Virus record (IMG/VR): IMGVR_UViG_3300030331_000008
Span: 1-25,488 of that record
Strand: one strand, 5' to 3'
Origin: a virus
DNA: 25,488 bases
Positions 4,651 to 22,554 of the stretch are shown in pieces. A program made the translations under genes and the position numbers. Below the pieces are notes generated by a model that was given only the letters and a program-made list of their open reading frames with translations, made no database searches and had not been told where the DNA came from. Position 1 is the first letter of the stretch. Each line of letters begins with the position of its first letter.

Positions 4651-5037
4651 ATGACAGTTGAAGCAGTAAAAGAGGAAGCTGTAGATAAAGCGGAAACCGC
4701 AGAGCCTACACAACTTCCCGAACCTCAAGGGTATAAAATATTGATAGCACTACCAGAACATGAAGAAGTATCTGATGGTGGTATTATTATTGCAGACCAA
4801 TATAGAAAGAGAGAGGAGACAGCATCCATAGTGGGTTTTGTTTTGAAGATGGGTCCAGATTGTTATAAAGATGAAAACAGATTTCCTACAGGTCCATACT
4901 GTAAGGAAGGTGATTTTATAATTATGAGATCATATAGTGGCACACGCATGAGTATTCATGGCAAAGAATTTAGACTCATAAATGATGATACTGTAGAAGC
5001 TGTTGTAGATGATCCTAGAGGAATAGAGAAACCATGA
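4651..5037 (+). CDS. groES: GroES-like co-chaperonin
   Basis: A 128-residue protein whose residues 25-122 follow the GroES fold pattern: PQGYKILIALPEHEEV corresponds to the first strand of GroES, DGGIIIADQYRK to the mobile loop with its GroEL-binding hydrophobic tripeptide (I45-I47 in place of E. coli IVL), a variable roof region around 68-86, and EGDFIIMRSYSGTRMSIHGKEFRLINDD to the conserved C-terminal strands. The first 24 residues are an acidic extension. By analogy with T4 gp31 it should cap host GroEL during capsid folding. Its position between portal and scaffold fits that. Start ATG 4651 has AAGG six bases upstream, behind the structured leader. The stop overlaps the next start as ATGA. 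Confidence 0.85.
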   Translation: MTVEAVKEEAVDKAETAEPTQLPEPQGYKILIALPEHEEVSDGGIIIADQYRKREETASIVGFVLKMGPDCYKDENRFPTGPYCKEGDFIIMRSYSGTRMSIHGKEFRLINDDTVEAVVDDPRGIEKP

Positions 5038-7098: not shown

Positions 7099-8013
7099 AT
7101 GGCAATTTCAAGAGCGCAGTTACTTAAAGAACTCCTTCCGGGTCTAAATGCCCTGTTTGGATTAGAGTATGCTAAATACGAGAATGAGCATGAGCAGATA
7201 TATGAAACAGAAACTTCTGATAGATCGTTTGAAGAAGAAGTAAAGTTGAGTGGATTTGGTCAAGCTTCTGTTAAAGATGAAGGTTCAGCTATCAACTATG
7301 ATACTGCACAAGAGTCTTTTAGCACTCGTTATAACCATGAAACAATAGCGATGGGTTTTGCAATTACAGAAGAAGCGATGGAGGATAATTTATACGATTC
7401 GCTTTCTGCACGTTATACTAAAGCACTAGCTAGAAGCATGGCTTACACCAAGCAAGTAAAAGCTGCGAATCCTCTTAACCAAGGATTCTCAGGTGGTTCG
7501 TTCAATTCAGGCGATGGTGTAGATTTGTTTTCTACTGCACACCCTTTGGTGTCAGGTGGAACAAACTCCAACACATTTGCAACACAAGCAGACCTTAACG
7601 AAACTTCGTTAGAGAATGCTGTGATTCAAATAGCAGGATGGACAGATGAGCGTGGACTGTTAATAGCAGCAAAACCACGTAAGTTAATTGTACCACCAGC
7701 AGGTATGTTTACTGCTTCACGTATCTTAGATTCAGATATGAGACCTAACACAGCCGATAATGATATCAATGCCATTAGAGCAAATGGTAGCATTCCAGAA
7801 GGCTTTGTTGTGAATCATTTCTTAACCGATACTAATGCTTTCTTCTTGATGACTGACGTACCAAATGGCATGAAGCACTTTGCACGTAGTCCATTAGAAA
7901 CAAGCATGGATGGTGACTTTGATACTGGCAACGTAAGATACAAAGCAAGAGAAAGGTATTCCTTTGGAGTATCTGATCCACTAGGTATTTTTGGTTCTTC
8001 GGGATCAAGCTAG
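7099..8013 (+). CDS. Major capsid protein (Mu gpT-like, HK97 fold)
   Basis: A 304-residue protein with the layout of the Mu gpT-like major head subunit family: an N-terminal helical arm, the segment FGLEYAKYENEHEQIYET, a strongly acidic EEEVKLSGFGQASVKDEG region, the DNLYDSLSARYTKALARSM helix, the glycine-rich SGGSFNSGDGVDLFSTAHPL, and a C-terminal beta-rich part ending in Ser/Gly. It forms the icosahedral shell with the scaffold and decoration proteins encoded just upstream. It has the strongest ribosome-binding site nearby (AAAGGAG at 7084-7090, eight bases from ATG) and is followed by a terminator-like hairpin, both as expected for the most abundant virion protein. Confidence 0.88.
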   Translation: MAISRAQLLKELLPGLNALFGLEYAKYENEHEQIYETETSDRSFEEEVKLSGFGQASVKDEGSAINYDTAQESFSTRYNHETIAMGFAITEEAMEDNLYDSLSARYTKALARSMAYTKQVKAANPLNQGFSGGSFNSGDGVDLFSTAHPLVSGGTNSNTFATQADLNETSLENAVIQIAGWTDERGLLIAAKPRKLIVPPAGMFTASRILDSDMRPNTADNDINAIRANGSIPEGFVVNHFLTDTNAFFLMTDVPNGMKHFARSPLETSMDGDFDTGNVRYKARERYSFGVSDPLGIFGSSGSS

Positions 8014-9083: not shown

Positions 9084-9280
9084 TGTCTAAATCAGTAGAA
9101 ACTGATAAATTACCTTTAGAAGCACGTTTAAGTGGTTTAGAAAGAGAGTACGCTCTACGTTATGAGTACATAGAGCGTAGACTCGATGAAGGTAGTAAGA
9201 AGTTTTTAAGAATAGAAAACATGCTGTGGGGTCTGTATGGTCTAGTTTCTGTAGCAGTAGCATATATTAAATTTATATGA
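9083..9280 (+). CDS. Small membrane protein, holin- or XhlA-like
   Basis: A 65-residue protein. Residues 1-46 are charged and helical (LEARLSGLEREYALRYEYIE), and residues 47-65 form one hydrophobic segment (MLWGLYGLVSVAVAYIKFI) ending at the C-terminus. This coiled-coil-then-membrane layout resembles XhlA-type lysis accessories and C-tail-anchored phage proteins. It is overlapped on both sides (TAATG with the upstream gene, ATGA with the next membrane protein), so the two membrane proteins are probably made together. The lysis role is inferred; no endolysin lies beside it. Confidence 0.6.
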   Translation: MSKSVETDKLPLEARLSGLEREYALRYEYIERRLDEGSKKFLRIENMLWGLYGLVSVAVAYIKFI

Positions 9281-9594
9281 TTGAAGAATCTGTAAAGAAA
9301 AAAATAAATCTTGAAGTAGAGATAGATGCTAATGCAAATAGTGCTGGTGATAATCCTTTTCAGAAATGGATACACCTAGCTAGAACTATTGACGCATGGA
9401 GAATATTTCCTAGAGCATTTGTTACTGTTTATATCATATTGCTTTACAAAGTTGTTACTTGGTTTATGGATATACCTGAACCAAACTTAGAACAAGCTGG
9501 TTTAGTATCTATAGTTGTGGGTGCAATGGCAGCAGTGTTTGGAATATACGCAGGCACTTCAGGACAGAGCAAAAAATTTAAAGGTGAGGATTGA
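9277..9594 (+). CDS. Two-helix membrane protein, holin candidate
   Basis: A 105-residue protein with a charged N-terminus, the segment FQKWIHLARTIDAWRIFPRA that looks amphipathic, a first membrane helix at about 44-65, a short loop with DIPEPNLEQ, a second helix at about 74-93 rich in Gly and Ala, and a basic C-terminus (KKFKGED). Size and two-helix topology suit a class II holin, and I recall similar proteins in marine phages without proven function. It is coupled to the preceding single-pass protein by ATGA. It could instead be a virion membrane-contact protein. Confidence 0.6.
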   Translation: MIEESVKKKINLEVEIDANANSAGDNPFQKWIHLARTIDAWRIFPRAFVTVYIILLYKVVTWFMDIPEPNLEQAGLVSIVVGAMAAVFGIYAGTSGQSKKFKGED

Positions 9595-9875
9595 TGGCTA
9601 AAGACCCTAAGTTGAAAAAAGCAGGGGTTAGCGGATATAACAAACCTAAAAGAACTCCTAATCATCCTAAGAAGTCGCATGTTGTTGTGGCTAAGAAAGG
9701 TGATAAGACTAAACTAATACGTTTTGGACAGCAAGGTGTCAAAGGTGCTGGGAAAAATCCTAAGTCTAAAAAAGACAAAGCACGTAAGAAGTCCTACTAT
9801 GCAAGACATAATGCACAAGATGCAAGTCCAGATAAGTTTAGTGCTAGGTATTGGAGTCATAAAGTTAAATGGTAA
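9594..9875 (+). CDS. Small Lys-rich protein, marine-phage family 1
   Basis: A 93-residue protein with 23 Lys and 5 Arg against 5 Asp and no Glu. It has aromatic clusters near the end (KKSYYARHNAQDASPDKFSARYW) and a conserved-looking opening (DPKLKKAGVSGYNKPKRTPN). I recognise it as a family recurrent in marine phages, function unknown. The charge suggests binding to nucleic acid, either packaged or host DNA. ATG 9594 overlaps the previous stop as TGATG and is preferred to the in-frame TTG at 9591. First of five consecutive basic genes. Confidence 0.7.
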   Translation: MAKDPKLKKAGVSGYNKPKRTPNHPKKSHVVVAKKGDKTKLIRFGQQGVKGAGKNPKSKKDKARKKSYYARHNAQDASPDKFSARYWSHKVKW

Positions 9876-10087
9876 TTAGTAGAACTCAAACAAAAAAACA
9901 AATGACAGGTAAAAAAAAGAAATCTAGGGTAAATGAAGCCGGTAACTATACCAAGCCGGGTATGCGTGAGAAGATGTTTAAACGTATTAAGGCAGGTGGT
10001 AAAGGTGGAAAACCCGGACAATGGAGTGCTAGAAAAGCACAAATGTTAGCAAAACAATACAAAGCCAAAGGCGGAGGATATAAGTAA
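9869..10087 (+). CDS. Small basic protein with KGGKPGQWSARKAQ motif
   Basis: A 72-residue protein, roughly +20 net charge (17 Lys, 5 Arg, 2 Glu). Residues from about 26 form a compact conserved domain, GNYTKPGMREKMFKRIKAGG, then KGGKPGQWSARKAQMLAKQY and a GGGYK end. I recall this domain from marine phages and, less surely, from large algal viruses; its function is not known to me. The start at 9869 overlaps the previous gene by 7 bp; ATG 9902 is an alternative that would remove only the unconserved basic leader. Confidence 0.7.
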   Translation: MVISRTQTKKQMTGKKKKSRVNEAGNYTKPGMREKMFKRIKAGGKGGKPGQWSARKAQMLAKQYKAKGGGYK

Positions 10088-10287
10088 TGATGAAAAAAGC
10101 TAAAGGTAAAGCCATGAAAATAAAAGGAGTTGATGTTAGTTCTTTAAACAAAACTCAACAGAAAGCTATGAAAAGTCATTCAGTACACCATACTGGTAAA
10201 CACATAAAAGCTATGGTGCATGATATGAAGAAAGGTGCTACCTTCGGAGAGTCTCATAAAAAAGCACAAAAGAAAGTTGGCAAGTAG
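10087..10287 (+). CDS. Small Lys/His-rich protein
   Basis: A 66-residue protein, helical and strongly basic, with a His cluster (KSHSVHHTGKHIKAMVHDMK) and a Lys-rich end. The core phrase KIKGVDVSSLNKTQQKAMKSH suggests a short helix-turn-helix-like or helical hairpin fold, but this is not established. Two ATG codons (10087 and 10090) are both usable; the first forms a TAATG overlap with the upstream stop. Third member of the basic gene run. Confidence 0.65.
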   Translation: MMKKAKGKAMKIKGVDVSSLNKTQQKAMKSHSVHHTGKHIKAMVHDMKKGATFGESHKKAQKKVGK

Positions 10288-10582
10288 AGACCCAAAAGAA
10301 GGAACAGGAAAAAAACCTAAAGGAAGCGGAAGGCGTTTATATACAGATGAAAATCCTAAAGATACAGTACCCATTAAATTTGCAACACCTACAGATGCAA
10401 GGAAAACAGTCGCAAAGGTCAAACGTATTAAAAAACCTTTTGCCAGAAAAATACAAATACTTACAGTTGGAGAGCAAAGATCAAAAGTTATGGGTAAATC
10501 TGAGGTCTCTAATATATTTAAAAAGGGTAAAGACTCAATAAGAAAGTCTCATGGCAATAGCAAAAAGTCAAAAAAGTCTTAA
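10277..10582 (+). CDS. Small basic protein, RDPKEGTGKKPKGSGRRLYTDENP family
   Basis: About 101 residues, basic, opening with ASRDPKEGTGKKPKGSGRRL, then a mixed region (TVPIKFATPTDARKTVAKVK) and a helix (PFARKIQILTVGEQRSKVMG). The opening matches how I recall homologues in marine phages beginning, which argues for the TTG at 10277 as the start although a GTG at 10235 is also in frame. That start overlaps the upstream gene by 11 bp. Its C-terminus overlaps the next gene by 32 bp in another frame. Function unknown; nucleic-acid binding is likely from charge. Confidence 0.65.
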   Translation: MASRDPKEGTGKKPKGSGRRLYTDENPKDTVPIKFATPTDARKTVAKVKRIKKPFARKIQILTVGEQRSKVMGKSEVSNIFKKGKDSIRKSHGNSKKSKKS

Positions 10583-10790
10583 AGATTGGACGAAACAAAA
10601 ATGGCGTACTAAGTCAGGCAAGAAGTCGTCTGAAACAGGAGAAAGATATCTTCCTGAAAAAGCTATAAAAGCTATGTCTAGTGCGCAATATGCAGCAACA
10701 ACTAAAAAGAAAAGAGCAGATACTAAGAAAGGTAAACAGTTTTCTAAACAACCTAAGTCTGCTGCAAAGATATCAAAAAGGTATAGGTGA
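10551..10790 (+). CDS. Small basic protein with KWRTKSGKKSSETGERYLP motif
   Basis: A 79-residue very basic protein. The conserved-looking core is SLKDWTKQKWRTKSGKKSSE, then TGERYLPEKAIKAMSSAQYA, with a Lys/Arg-rich tail. Homologues in marine viruses are familiar to me but carry no proven function. The Trp and the strictly spaced basic residues suggest a folded DNA- or RNA-binding unit rather than a disordered tail. It ends in a TGATG overlap with the nuclease gene, so the two are probably co-translated. Confidence 0.7.
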   Translation: MAIAKSQKSLKDWTKQKWRTKSGKKSSETGERYLPEKAIKAMSSAQYAATTKKKRADTKKGKQFSKQPKSAAKISKRYR

Positions 10791-11206
10791 TGTATGAATA
10801 TTCTTGTGAAGTTAAAAGGGTGGTGGACGGAGATACTGTGGATGTCATATTGGACCTTGGGTTTGATGTTTCTTATAGCACTAGGGTGCGTTTATATGGT
10901 ATTGATACTCCCGAGTCACGTACTCGTAACAAAGATGAGAAAGCTAGAGGAAAAATGGCTGCGCATTTTTTAAAAGAAGCTATTGATAATGGAGATAAAG
11001 TAGTAATACAAACTAAACTGAAAGATTCAAAAGGAAAATATGGAAGAGTATTAGGTGAAGTTATAGTAGATGATGTAAACATTAATGAACAAATGGTTGA
11101 CAAACATTTAGCAGTAAAATACTTTGGACAAAGTAAAGATGATATAGAAGCAGAACATCTTAAGAATAGACAAATATTAATTGATAACGGAACATTTGAA
11201 CCTTAA
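10790..11206 (+). CDS. Staphylococcal nuclease-like (SNase) enzyme
   Basis: A 138-residue Ca-dependent nuclease of the thermonuclease family, cleaving DNA and RNA. Counting from ATG 10790, the metal ligands D15 (VDGDTVDV), D39 and T40, and catalytic R34 and E42 (VRLYGIDTPE) and R86 (YGRVLGE), match staphylococcal nuclease D21, D40, T41, R35, E43 and R87, so the active site is intact. No signal peptide is seen, so it acts in the host cytoplasm or travels in the virion. Degrading host DNA for nucleotides is the likely role. ATG 10790 overlaps the upstream stop and is preferred to GTG 10787. Confidence 0.92.
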   Translation: MYEYSCEVKRVVDGDTVDVILDLGFDVSYSTRVRLYGIDTPESRTRNKDEKARGKMAAHFLKEAIDNGDKVVIQTKLKDSKGKYGRVLGEVIVDDVNINEQMVDKHLAVKYFGQSKDDIEAEHLKNRQILIDNGTFEP

Positions 11207-11242
11207 AATAAATTAACATGTTTAAACAACAGGAGAAAAAAT

Positions 11243-11479
11243 ATGCCAAACGTAGGTAAAAAGAACTTTCCATATGATGATGCAGGTATGAAAGCAGCAC
11301 GTAAGGAAATGAAAAAATCAGGTAAAGATATGATTATCAAGTTTGACGAAGGTGGAAAGGTAGATGACTATCAAGATAGCCTTGTTAAAAAATTTGGTGA
11401 TGGTGGTATGTACAAGATGGCTGGTGGTGGTATGCCTATGTATCACAAAGGTGGTATGGGTAAAAAGAAAAAGAAATAA
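11243..11479 (+). CDS. Small Lys/Gly-rich protein with repeated GG motifs
   Basis: A 78-residue protein. The N-terminal half (PNVGKKNFPYDDAGMKAARK) is a conserved-looking basic helix. The C-terminal half holds FDEGGKV (34-40), FGDGGMYKM (51-59) and GGGMPMYHKGGM (61-72) before a Lys tail. The GG motifs recur in two ejection-type proteins encoded later in the window. AGGAG lies shortly before the ATG. Function unknown; the shared motif suggests a virion protein or a partner of one. Confidence 0.65.
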   Translation: MPNVGKKNFPYDDAGMKAARKEMKKSGKDMIIKFDEGGKVDDYQDSLVKKFGDGGMYKMAGGGMPMYHKGGMGKKKKK

Positions 11480-12515: not shown

Positions 12516-13165
12516 TGTCATTTACATTCACTACATTAAAAACTGCAATACAGGATTATACTGAAAATACAGAGACCACATTTGTAAATAATCTTCCCAC
12601 TTTGATAAAACAAGCTGAAAGTAGAATAAATAGTTCAGTAGAATTACCACGTTATAGAAAGAATCAACAAGCTACTGCAACTATAAATAATCAATATCTT
12701 GGAGTGCCAGATGATTTTTTATACTCTTATTCATTGGCAGTGTTAGATTCAGATGGTAACTATAATTTTTTAATAAATAAAGATGTTAATTTTATCAGAG
12801 AGGCTTATCCTAAACCCTCTGCTAATACAGGATTACCAGAATACTACGCACAATTCGATGATGGTTTTTTTATACTAGGTCCAACACCTGATGCTAATTA
12901 CACAGTAGAGTTACATTATTTTCATTTGCCACAATCTATTACTGCATCATCAGATGGTACAAGTTGGTTGGGTTCTAATGCACCTGATGTACTTTTATTT
13001 GGTTCTTTAGTAGAGGCATATATATTTATGAAAGGTGAGCCTGATTTAGTTAGTCTGTATGAAACTAGATTTAAAGAAGCATTAGATAAGTTAGTAGTAG
13101 AACAAGATGGTAGAAATAGAAAAGATGCTTATAGAGGCGGTCAAAGAAGGATAATGGAACAATAA
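12515..13165 (+). CDS. Phage adaptor protein, SU10-adaptor-like
   Basis: A 216-residue protein that matches my recollection of the adaptor family exemplified by phage SU10: TFTTLKTAIQDYTENTETTF, FVNNLPTLIKQAESRI, a beta-rich middle (YLGVPDDFLYSYSLAVLD), the phrase FFILGPTPDANYTVELHYFH, and a helical end (PDLVSLYETRFKEALDKLV). Such proteins link portal to tail or form the nozzle ring of podoviruses. Both ends overlap neighbours by TAATG. Confidence 0.72.
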   Translation: MSFTFTTLKTAIQDYTENTETTFVNNLPTLIKQAESRINSSVELPRYRKNQQATATINNQYLGVPDDFLYSYSLAVLDSDGNYNFLINKDVNFIREAYPKPSANTGLPEYYAQFDDGFFILGPTPDANYTVELHYFHLPQSITASSDGTSWLGSNAPDVLLFGSLVEAYIFMKGEPDLVSLYETRFKEALDKLVVEQDGRNRKDAYRGGQRRIMEQ

Positions 13166-13932
13166 TGTTAAAAGAAAGAATACTAGATTTAGAAGGCAAA
13201 CACATAGCTATTGTAGCTATGGGCATGAGTCAAATAGATTTTCATTTATCACAATTACATAGTAAGAAGTTTGATGAAGTTTGGGTGATTAATGCAATGA
13301 TAGGAGTAGTTAAAAAAGCTGATAGAGCATTTATACTTGATCCTATGTCTCGTTTTTTTGATACAGACGATGCAGCATCTATGTCAGAAATGATGAGAGA
13401 AGAGTTACCTAAAATAGACTATCCTATATATTCTTGTGAATTAGATGCAAGAGTTCCAGCCGTAGAAGAGTATCCTATCAAAAGTGTAATAGAAGATACA
13501 TCATGTGCTTATCTAAATAACACAGTGGCTTATGCTATAGCTTTTGCTTATTGGAATAATGTAGGTTCAATAAGTATGTTTGGCACAGATTTTACTTATA
13601 ACAATAATGCACATTTTGCAGAGATGGGTAGAGCGTGTTGTGAATATTGGTTAGGCAAATGTATGGAAAAAAACGTAGATGTATCTGTGGCTGTTAGATC
13701 AAATTTATTAGATGCTAATGTAGATATGAAAGATAAACTATACGGATATCATCGTTTAAACGATCCAATAGTTTCTTATTTAGATGATGGAAAATTATCA
13801 GTGTGTAACTATTCAGAGATCATACAAGAAAGAATGATACCACATGGAATTATAGGAAGAGAAAATCCTAAAGAGTGGGTTATTGATGAGAGATCAAATG
13901 GCAGCACACCACCAGAACCATTAGTACCATAA
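13165..13932 (+). CDS. Rossmann-like protein, DUF115/MptE- or GT42-like
   Basis: A 255-residue protein. It opens with a strand-loop-helix KHIAIVAMGMSQIDFHLSQL, then FDEVWVINAM and ADRAFILDPM, and later NNTVAYAIAFAYWNNVGSIS followed by MFGTDFTY and HFAEMGRACCEYWL. This order resembles DUF115/MptE-like proteins and GT42 sialyltransferases, where a small-residue loop near the first strand and a GxDF motif after a helix bind nucleotide substrate. The match is by pattern, not by a proven active site. Similar proteins occur in the structural module of marine phages with no known role. Modification of virion or host glycans is one possibility. The last 20 residues are Pro-rich and probably disordered. 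Confidence 0.6.
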   Translation: MLKERILDLEGKHIAIVAMGMSQIDFHLSQLHSKKFDEVWVINAMIGVVKKADRAFILDPMSRFFDTDDAASMSEMMREELPKIDYPIYSCELDARVPAVEEYPIKSVIEDTSCAYLNNTVAYAIAFAYWNNVGSISMFGTDFTYNNNAHFAEMGRACCEYWLGKCMEKNVDVSVAVRSNLLDANVDMKDKLYGYHRLNDPIVSYLDDGKLSVCNYSEIIQERMIPHGIIGRENPKEWVIDERSNGSTPPEPLVP

Positions 13933-20805: not shown

Positions 20806-22554
20806 ATGAGTAATTTTCCATTACAAAATGCAGCAGAGCAACTAGCTAAACAGGGGAGATATGGCGATACCATGATGGTACACATGAACCCTATAGAAGT
20901 AGATGCTTTAGCAAAATTATCACCAACAGGTCAGTTAACCATCAACCCACAGACAGGGCAACCAGAGGCGTTTCTGCCACTCATAGGGTCATTGATTGCA
21001 CCAACACTATTAGGTAGTACAGCATTAGGTGCAGCATTAAGTCCATTAGCAGCATCTGCAATAGGAACTGGATTAGGAACTGTTGCTGAAGGTGGTAGTC
21101 TTAAAGAAGGTATAACAGCTGGATTAACAGGCGCAATCACAGGTGGTTTACTAAAAGGTTTTATGCCCGGAACAGCTACTGAAATACCTTCTGTGGGTGA
21201 TACAGCAGCTACTACAGATAAATTGTTACAAGCACCTGAGTTTGTAGAAGCTACAGGGGGTTCAGGAATGTTACCCGGTGCTACTTTAAATGAAGCGGGA
21301 CAAGAAGCTTTGAATGTTTTGCAACCCGGTACAACTTCTGTGCCTTTTCAACCAGTTAATACATTGGCTGATTTACCAGCTGCACGTGCAGGAACAGAGG
21401 GTTTCTTTAGTAGATTAGGACAGAATTTAGGATTTTCTGGTGGAGCAACACCTGAACAATTAGCAGGTAATCCTAATTTAATGACTCAATCACAGGCTTT
21501 TACAACACAGGCTTTACCAGCAGCAGCATCAGGATTGGTAGGCGAGATGTATGTGCCTATGGATTTTAATATGCCAGAGGAAGAGGACCCATTTGGTGAT
21601 TATGAAGGTCCTTATGTGCCACAAGAAATGAGGACTATGATTCCGGGAAGTGGAGGCAACCCATTAGCATCAGCATTCCAAGGAGAGCAACAGTTAATAC
21701 AAGGCAATCCTTTACCAATAGGTGATGAGTTTAATTTTAACGATGGTGGTAAAGTAAATAATCCTTTTGATTTTTTACCTTCAATGTCAGGTTTAGCATT
21801 AGCTGGTAATATGGCAGAAAGTGGCGCAATGGGTTTATTGCCTATGGCAATTAACATGTTTAAAGATGACGAAGATGAAAAAGATAAAGAACCAACAATG
21901 AAAGAAAAAGAAAATCAACGTCAATTTATAGGAACTGTACCAATGGATATGATGCAAGGTATGGATGCTATGCAAGTACCTACAGATATGTTGAATGATG
22001 GCGGTATGCCTTTGCAAAATCCTGAAAAAGCTGATCTTGATAATGATGGTGAATTATCTTCATATGAAAGAACAAGAGGTAAAGCTATTGAAGAAAATAT
22101 GAAAAACATGGGTGGTCTTATAAAGATGGCTAATGGTCGTACACCCGCACAAGCAGAGATAGAGGAGAGTGCAGAAACTTTAGAGCGTAGAAGAATAGAT
22201 GACGCTATAAGAAAACAATTCCAAGAAACTATGTCAGCACCTATGGTTGATCCAAGACTAGGTAGAATGGCTGATCCTATTAGTACACCTGTACCAAGAA
22301 CTTTAAATGATGTGATGACACCACAGCCTTTTCAAGCACCATCATTAGCAGATATAAGGAGAATGCAAAGTGCATCATTAGATAGAATGTTTGTACCAAC
22401 AGACCCAGATAATCCGATAGATAGAGGTATGGCTACATTTAACAGACGATTCAATCCTATTGTTAGAGGAATAGAAGCGATCTCGCCTGTATTAACTAAA
22501 GGAGGTTTAGAATTGTATGAAGCTATAGACGAATTTAGGAAGAGAGATAGGTAA
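20806..22554 (+). CDS. Candidate ejection/pilot protein with EF-hand loop
   Basis: A 582-residue protein. N-terminus: VHMNPIEVDALAKLSPTGQL, a phrase familiar from marine phages. Residues 55-120 are hydrophobic and rich in Gly, Ala and Leu (PLIGSLIAPTLLGSTALGAA), like membrane-inserting ejection proteins. An acidic patch (EEEDPFGDYEGP) and a charged stretch (KDDEDEKDKEPTMKEKE) follow. D410-E421 is a textbook EF-hand loop, DLDNDGELSSYE. GG motifs occur at FNDGGKV (311-317), LNDGGMP (396-402) and NMGGLIKMANG (434-444). The C-terminus is helical and basic. AGGAG lies six bases before ATG. Membrane passage during DNA entry is inferred, not shown. Confidence 0.6.
   Translation: MSNFPLQNAAEQLAKQGRYGDTMMVHMNPIEVDALAKLSPTGQLTINPQTGQPEAFLPLIGSLIAPTLLGSTALGAALSPLAASAIGTGLGTVAEGGSLKEGITAGLTGAITGGLLKGFMPGTATEIPSVGDTAATTDKLLQAPEFVEATGGSGMLPGATLNEAGQEALNVLQPGTTSVPFQPVNTLADLPAARAGTEGFFSRLGQNLGFSGGATPEQLAGNPNLMTQSQAFTTQALPAAASGLVGEMYVPMDFNMPEEEDPFGDYEGPYVPQEMRTMIPGSGGNPLASAFQGEQQLIQGNPLPIGDEFNFNDGGKVNNPFDFLPSMSGLALAGNMAESGAMGLLPMAINMFKDDEDEKDKEPTMKEKENQRQFIGTVPMDMMQGMDAMQVPTDMLNDGGMPLQNPEKADLDNDGELSSYERTRGKAIEENMKNMGGLIKMANGRTPAQAEIEESAETLERRRIDDAIRKQFQETMSAPMVDPRLGRMADPISTPVPRTLNDVMTPQPFQAPSLADIRRMQSASLDRMFVPTDPDNPIDRGMATFNRRFNPIVRGIEAISPVLTKGGLELYEAIDEFRKRDR

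What the first reader, a model, noticed from the sequence alone, without database searches (positions are those of the whole stretch)
9594..11479. Five overlapping genes for tiny, highly basic proteins followed by a nuclease
Seen: 9594, 9869, 10087, 10277 and 10551 overlap one another and all encode Lys-rich proteins of 66-101 residues, followed by an SNase overlapping the last, then a sixth basic protein at 11243. At least three have distinctive folded-looking motifs, not just polybasic tails. Established: SNase cuts nucleic acids. Inference: a coordinated nucleic-acid system, such as host nucleoid disruption and digestion, or condensation of packaged DNA. I know of no described function for the set.
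Basis: partly seen in the sequence, partly recalled or inferred. Interest (0 to 1): 0.72.

Follow-up and report, generated by a model that had tools for sequence, protein, structure and literature searches.

The report
Mobile cassette of small basic proteins
Next to its capsid genes this marine virus of bacteria carries a row of five tiny, strongly positively charged proteins; two of them form a conserved pair found across unrelated marine phages, relatives of two appear as parts of a protein recorded in virus particles, and they most likely bind the DNA packed in the virus head, while the nuclease beside them is incidental.

Summary
In detail: five overlapping late genes (9594-10790) encode 66-101 aa proteins of pI 10.5-11.1 amid acidic structural proteins. 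B2 (9869) and B5 (10551) are a near-obligate neighbour pair across unrelated marine phages (16 of 17 isolate records with B2 also have B5; 14 of 14 loci fetched with the capsid gene) and are fused into one protein in several phages. B1 (9594) and B4 (10277) join in variable order. B3, B6 and the SNase are mostly confined to close relatives; SNase occurs in 8 of 40 cassette-bearing records, so it is not a regular partner. Fusions point to the head: B1 is joined to a prohead-protease domain; B4 and a B5-like domain sit in a cyanophage protein (T4-GC119) annotated as structural or virion protein. B1 and the B2-B5 fusion are predicted to fold and match no solved structure. The B2-B5 fusion is also a bacterial chromosomal gene, often with a Rho_N-like tail, related to DUF5872. 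Most likely: small head-associated nucleic-acid-binding proteins, analogous to but not homologous with T4 internal proteins. Packaging and DNA binding are inferred, not shown.

The parts
9594..9875 (+). B1: 93-aa basic protein (phrog_7595). Predicted helix, beta hairpin, two helices; conserved KS(F/Y)..ARH...S(A).YW motif
   Evidence: phrog_7595 E 7e-34; weak phrog_220 'minor head protein and DNA pilot'; 45 isolate records; same domain fused to an XkdF-type prohead protease in Aeromonas phage PhAER-3; pLDDT 84.6
9869..10087 (+). B2: 72-aa basic protein (phrog_17747), G.WSARKAQ...YK..GGGY motif; N-terminal half of the B2-B5 (DUF5872-like) unit
   Evidence: E 9e-32; 17 isolate records; B5 is a neighbour in every testable locus of that call; fused to B5
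10087..10287 (+). B3: 66-aa basic protein, restricted distribution
   Evidence: 17 loci; in a cluster with other tiny basic cassette proteins
10277..10582 (+). B4: 101-aa basic protein (TTG start), RRLYTDENPKDTV motif; N-terminal module of cyanophage T4-GC119 in S-SM2
   Evidence: HTVC033P 78% identity; P-TIM68 E 3e-7; S-SM2 E 8e-7; dN/dS 0.12
10551..10790 (+). B5: 79-aa basic protein (phrog_14910), SLKDWTKQKWRTKSGK..GERYLP motif; C-terminal half of the B2-B5 unit
   Evidence: E 4e-35; 19 isolate records; profile match to the B5-like domain of T4-GC119, probability 95.5
10790..11206 (+). SNase-family nuclease (GIDTPES and GKYGR motifs kept, by eye); neighbour of the cassette in this lineage
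   Evidence: PF00565 60.3 bits, cut-off 21; phrog_452; 8 of 40 records
11243..11479 (+). B6: 78-aa Lys/Gly-rich protein, lineage-restricted, weaker charge
   Evidence: phrog_33179, N-terminal 33 residues; 11 loci
9277..9594 (+). Small hydrophobic (holin-like?) protein just upstream, overlapping B1 by 1 nt; context only
   Evidence: DUF3792, below cut-off; phrog_10198
7099..8013 (+). Major capsid protein, upstream; places the cassette in the head gene block (context)
   Evidence: phrog_371 E 5e-22

Best explanation
The five genes are the local version of a mobile late-gene cassette of small, folded, strongly basic nucleic-acid-binding modules. Made with the capsid and lysis proteins, they most likely enter or line the phage head, where their positive charge binds the packaged DNA; some may be ejected with it. 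B2 and B5 act together as one unit (two halves of a DUF5872-like protein); B1 and B4 are further modules that a phage can carry separately or fused to larger head or virion proteins. The SNase is an unrelated lineage-specific neighbour. Shown: gene reality, basicity, late-block position, the B2-B5 association and fusion, and fusions of B1, B4 and B5 to proteins with head-, tail- or virion-type annotation or position. Inferred: packaging, DNA binding, condensation and ejection.
For: Same-strand clustering without selection for it: among loci fetched with the capsid gene, 14 of 14 B2 genes have B5 within 3 kb and 14 of 15 B5 have B2; in isolates 16 records have both, against 17 and 19 in all, and in each the two lie within about 2 kb on one strand. 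B2-B5 fusions in six loci including the isolate S-CRES1, where B1 is the next gene. Fusions to virion-type proteins: B1 with Peptidase_S78_2/XkdF; B5 with a tape-measure-like ORF; B4 plus a B5-like domain in S-SM2 gene 109, T4-GC119, between terminase genes gp16 and gp17; the P-TIM68 B4 fusion is the second gene after the capsid gene. T4-GC119 homologs are annotated 'virion protein' in S-SCSM1, whose virions were analysed by mass spectrometry (PMC9602691), and 'structural protein ... GC0119' in S-B43. Small basic ORFs of other families are enriched 8-fold (odds ratio) near B2/B5 (209/826 against 19/471). Bacterial B2-B5 homologs often end in a Rho_N-like motif.
Against: No proteome of a phage with stand-alone B1-B5 was found. 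The S-SCSM1 virion protein has only the B5-like domain, not B4, and its link to B5 runs through a bridging family. The bacterial homologs sit in ordinary chromosomal or plasmid contexts, so the B2-B5 domain is not inherently a virion part. No DNA-binding fold was recognised. B1 is not linked to DUF6321 beyond a 14-residue motif.
Confidence: 0.5

Rival explanations
1. They are intracellular, not packaged: late-made RNA-, ribosome- or DNA-binding proteins that act in the infected cell, for example protecting or organising nucleic acid as the bacterial DUF5872/Rho_N-like proteins might.
For: Full-length B2-B5 homologs are ordinary bacterial genes (421 contigs; plasmid examples) with a Rho_N-like C-terminus. 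In several phages the cassette abuts lysis or early genes rather than head genes.
Against: Fusions of B1, B4 and B5 to head, virion or tape-measure proteins.
Confidence: 0.27
2. They are ejected anti-defence or take-over proteins like T4 IPI, each module aimed at some host system; the shuffling reflects an arms race.
For: Modular, variable membership around a fixed pair; T4 internal proteins are small, basic, poorly conserved and ejected, and IPI blocks a restriction enzyme (PMC9026906).
Against: B2 and B4 are nearly as constrained as the capsid protein (dN/dS 0.17 and 0.12 against 0.11), and the same B2-B5 domain serves phages of very different hosts, unlike a rapidly changing antagonist.
Confidence: 0.12
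3. Cationic lysis accessories: small basic proteins that help disrupt the envelope, given the hydrophobic genes 9083 and 9277 and lysis genes near the cassette elsewhere.
For: Proximity to lysozyme, amidase, spanin and holin-like genes.
Against: The fusions found are with head, tail or virion-type proteins, none with lysis enzymes.
Confidence: 0.05
4. One reading: a system that displaces the host nucleoid and lets SNase digest it.
For: SNase overlaps B5 in the window and is in the same cassette in its close relatives.
Against: No SNase match in 32 of 40 cassette-bearing records (many records are fragments, so this is an upper bound on absence). The genes lie in the late block.
Confidence: 0.04

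Closest known systems
DUF5872 (PF19197), incl. bacterial DUF5872/Rho_N-like proteins and giant algal virus proteins
   Same: B2-B5 fusions align over both halves of the profile (E 0.0027); bacterial homologs of about 131 aa are mostly 55-62% identical to the phage fusion and some pass the cut-off; the fusion model matches a DUF5872 protein of Chrysochromulina ericina virus (E 0.017).
   Different: In the window the two halves are separate overlapping genes, each without a Pfam hit; no Rho_N-like tail; set in a late phage cassette.
T4-GC119 / phrog_727, virion protein of T4-like cyanophages
   Same: Contains B4 (S-SM2) and a B5-like domain; encoded between or near terminase genes; annotated virion/structural.
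   Different: One chain of 427-708 aa with extra domains (DUF6321; in S-SM2 also DUF192); the window phage has free-standing modules and no DUF6321 match above cut-off.
T4 internal proteins IPI, IPII, IPIII
   Same: Small basic proteins of variable families that go into the head; they bind DNA at low salt and are ejected (PMC9026906).
   Different: No sequence relation found; no shared N-terminal targeting propeptide; no prohead protease recognised in the window.
phrog_7595 / phrog_220 module and XkdF-type prohead protease fusions
   Same: B1 is a member of phrog_7595 and the domain occurs inside head-type proteins.
   Different: Stand-alone in the window, without protease or minor-head domains.
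SNase family PF00565 (phrog_452)
   Same: Full domain with GIDTPES and GKYGR motifs.
   Different: Ordinary member; its association with the cassette is local.

Membership tests
DUF5872 (PF19197) | Profile score above the curated cut-off for the window proteins | tested here: not met
   B2 and B5 have no DUF5872 hit at E<=1; fused phage forms score 14.7-18.7 bits against 27.5
DUF5872 (PF19197) | Homology of the joined B2-B5 unit to members above cut-off | tested here: met
   Bacterial homologs retrieved with the fusion alignment score 28.6 and 28.1 bits; a related plasmid protein is named DUF5872 domain-containing protein
T4 internal head proteins | Small, basic, encoded in the late head gene region | tested here: met
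T4 internal head proteins | Common N-terminal capsid-targeting propeptide cut by a prohead protease | tested here: not met
   First 20 residues of the five window proteins share no sequence (by eye); no protease family stood out among the head genes scanned (the window is a fragment)
T4 internal head proteins | Present inside virions and ejected | not testable with these tools
   needs virion proteomics
T4-GC119 (phrog_727) | Shares the N-terminal B4 module (S-SM2 form) | tested here: met
   window B4 alone finds S-SM2 at E 8e-7 and the P-TIM68 protein at E 3e-7
T4-GC119 (phrog_727) | Shares the B5-like domain | tested here: met
   profile-profile probability 95.5, E 1.5e-8, with bridging small proteins in the profile
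T4-GC119 (phrog_727) | C-terminal DUF6321 related to B1 | tested here: inconclusive
   only 14 columns, probability 35.8; DUF6321 hit of B1 below cut-off
phrog_7595 (B1) | Profile match | tested here: met
   E 7e-34 over residues 3-93
SNase PF00565 | Profile match above cut-off | tested here: met
   60.3 bits against 21

The most novel reading that the evidence does not exclude
A widespread phage 'nucleoprotein kit': interchangeable small basic modules, one pair of which is shared with bacterial chromosomes and giant algal viruses, coats and compacts the genome inside the heads of abundant marine phages, giving tailed phages a chromatin-like core.
Probability: 0.15. Interest if true: 0.82.

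Novelty: new variant of a known kind. Interest (0 to 1): 0.55.

Why it matters
The families are in hundreds of marine virus contigs and in phages of SAR11, SAR116, Roseobacter and OM43-type hosts, yet are listed only as unknown (PHROGs) or not at all. Defining a conserved pair, its fusions and its bacterial counterpart turns scattered 'hypothetical proteins' into one testable hypothesis about what, besides DNA, is in the heads of very abundant phages.

Tried and rejected
SNase as functional partner: disfavoured after the 40-record family search. B1 = DUF6321: profile comparison supports only a short motif, not claimed. S-CREM2 gp137 as virion evidence: found in virions (4 unique peptides, PMC10665884 Table 3), but it carries only DUF6321, so it is not counted. 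B1 and B4 related to each other: no. Solved-structure relatives: none convincing by sequence or by fold (the second aligner gave nothing above Z 2.7; absence of a match is no proof of a new fold). Link of the bacterial homolog to Ku end-joining: 21 of 30 genomes have Ku, but no sign of adjacency where positions could be compared. B1 and B4 in 240 alphaproteobacterial genomes: none, while the fusion profile matched 2; without a positive control for B1/B4 this is weak. Double-glycine motif shared by B6 and the large virion proteins: counts only about 1.5-2 times shuffled expectation, dropped. Cassette promoter or terminator: no excess over shuffles. Literature on these families: one paper mentions DUF5872, none DUF6321. 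The pelagiphage transcriptome paper uses phages other than those with the cassette here.

Full report
Setting. The window is a 25,488-base virus record, a fragment of a tailed marine phage. Genes run in one direction from terminase (411) through portal (1975), a GroES-like protein (4651), a scaffold-like gene (5034) and the major capsid protein (7099) to tail genes. The finding lies between capsid and head-tail genes.

Observation. The five genes are present as described, overlap by 7, 1, 11 and 32 nt, and SNase overlaps the fifth by 1 nt. Their net charge (+0.21 to +0.28 per residue) is unlike any other of 34 window genes, nearly all of which are acidic; five such genes falling together by chance has a probability near 1e-4. 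Homologs and substitution patterns show they are coding and, for B1, B2 and B4, under purifying selection. I call them B1 (9594), B2 (9869), B3 (10087), B4 (10277), B5 (10551) and B6 (11243).

What is conserved. IMG/VR loci were fetched with the capsid protein, B1, B5 and B4, collapsed to 296 distinct groups and searched with iterated profiles. B2, never used as a query, is next to B5 nearly always. In loci fetched with the capsid gene, where neither was selected for, 14 of 14 B2 have B5 within 3 kb on the same strand and 14 of 15 B5 have B2; in loci fetched with B1 it is 10 of 10 and 11 of 15. In 50,697 isolate phage records B2 is in 17, B5 in 19, and 16 have both; within the 62 records holding any of the four families the overlap has P = 6e-11 (records are not independent, and HMO-2011 appears twice). 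Their hosts are Pelagibacter, Puniceispirillum, Roseobacter-type and Methylophilales strains. B1 and B4 are common but movable members with changing order. B1 is the most widespread alone: 45 isolate records, 35 without the others. B3, B6 and SNase are largely restricted to close relatives. Other tiny basic families recur beside the cassette and rarely elsewhere in the loci, and small basic ORFs outside B1-B6 are enriched within 1.5 kb of B2/B5 (209 of 826 against 19 of 471, odds ratio 8).

The nuclease. PF00565 is in 8 of 40 cassette-bearing records, four of them close relatives of the window. It is an ordinary SNase by sequence and best seen as a lineage-specific neighbour.

Fusions. (a) B2 and B5 are one protein in L118, L138, L150, L089, L009 and the cyanophage isolate S-CRES1, where B1 is the next gene. 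(b) B1 is fused in Aeromonas phage PhAER-3 to a Peptidase_S78_2 (XkdF) domain, a prohead-protease type, and B1 matches part of phrog_220, 'minor head protein and DNA pilot'. (c) B5 is fused in L200/L201 to a region resembling tape-measure proteins. (d) B4 is the N-terminal module of S-SM2 gene 109, a 708-aa protein between terminase subunits gp16 and gp17; the window B4 alone finds it at E 8e-7 and finds P-TIM68, whose fusion is the second gene after the capsid gene, at E 3e-7. The profile A1 includes the S-SM2 row, so the stronger score is partly by construction. (e) The same S-SM2 protein has a domain like the small protein family phrog_23735, and a profile of these matches the B5 profile with probability 95.5. 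This protein family, T4-GC119, is recorded as 'virion protein' in S-SCSM1, a phage whose CsCl-purified virions were analysed by mass spectrometry (PMC9602691), and as 'T4-like structural protein, cyanophage only T4-like GC0119' in S-B43. These are annotations; I could not see the peptide tables.

Beyond phages. A scan of bacterial and archaeal genomes (one per species, 84,980) with the fusion alignment found 421 stretches that encode a relative; the best 80 are mostly from Sphingomonas, Methylobacterium, Azospirillum, Aureimonas and their kin, on long chromosomal contigs. Several carry an extra C-terminal motif matching Rho_N just below its cut-off (best E 3e-5), and two of six tested pass the DUF5872 cut-off. 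On plasmids of Phaeobacter and Azospirillum some are named Rho_N-domain or DUF5872 proteins. DUF5872 is also annotated in an algal giant virus (PMC12085832), and the fusion's model matches a DUF5872 protein of Chrysochromulina ericina virus at E 0.017. So the B2-B5 unit is shared by phages, giant viruses and bacteria; the direction of transfer was not tested.

Structure. B1 is predicted as helix, beta hairpin and two helices (mean pLDDT 84.6); the fusion as a helical protein (92.8, pTM 0.64). Neither matches a solved structure convincingly.

Mechanism. Late-block position, strong positive charge, predicted folds, fusion partners and the Rho_N-like tail of the bacterial form all fit small nucleic-acid-binding proteins that accompany the packaged genome. 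T4's internal proteins are the functional precedent: basic, a few hundred copies per head, DNA-binding at low salt, ejected, and poorly conserved (PMC9026906). The present proteins lack that family's defining tag and show no relation, so the claim is 'works like', not 'is'. An intracellular role is the main rival because the bacterial homologs are not virion parts.

Limits. Most IMG/VR records are fragments, so absence counts are lower bounds on presence; loci were ranked by similarity to the window; gene calls in loci were made by a simple ORF picker; dN/dS used pairwise counts on sampled pairs.

Noticed in passing
L004:6258-8619 (Puniceispirillum phage HMO-2011): The methanesulfonate monooxygenase alpha-subunit gene of HMO-2011 sits between B2 (gp63) and B5 (gp59), splitting the pair.
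   Followed up: no
L319:5001-5213 (roseophage SIO1): A B1 homolog lies in an unannotated gap of the SIO1 genome record.
   Followed up: no
window 20806-22554; tiny cassette family t63 in several loci: EF-hand-like loops (DLDNDGELSSYE; DMDKDGKLTKKD) occur in a large protein of the tail/virion region and in a 52-aa basic cassette protein.
   Followed up: partly
L224:2527-3234: B2 is fused behind an 'APKGYHWM' module that also exists as a separate tiny basic cassette protein.
   Followed up: no
BFVD A0A6J5PCY7: A 1022-aa 'ParB/Sulfiredoxin' phage protein contains a stretch matching the B2-B5 model over 49 residues at 47% identity.
   Followed up: no
window 4651-5037: GroES-like co-chaperonin gene between portal and capsid genes.
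   Followed up: no
window 13165-13932: 255-aa protein in the tail region with no PHROG match at E 0.001.
   Followed up: no
L329:1050-2522 (cyanophage S-CREM2 gp137): A protein between terminase genes with a C-terminal DUF6321, detected in virions with 4 unique peptides (PMC10665884).
   Followed up: partly
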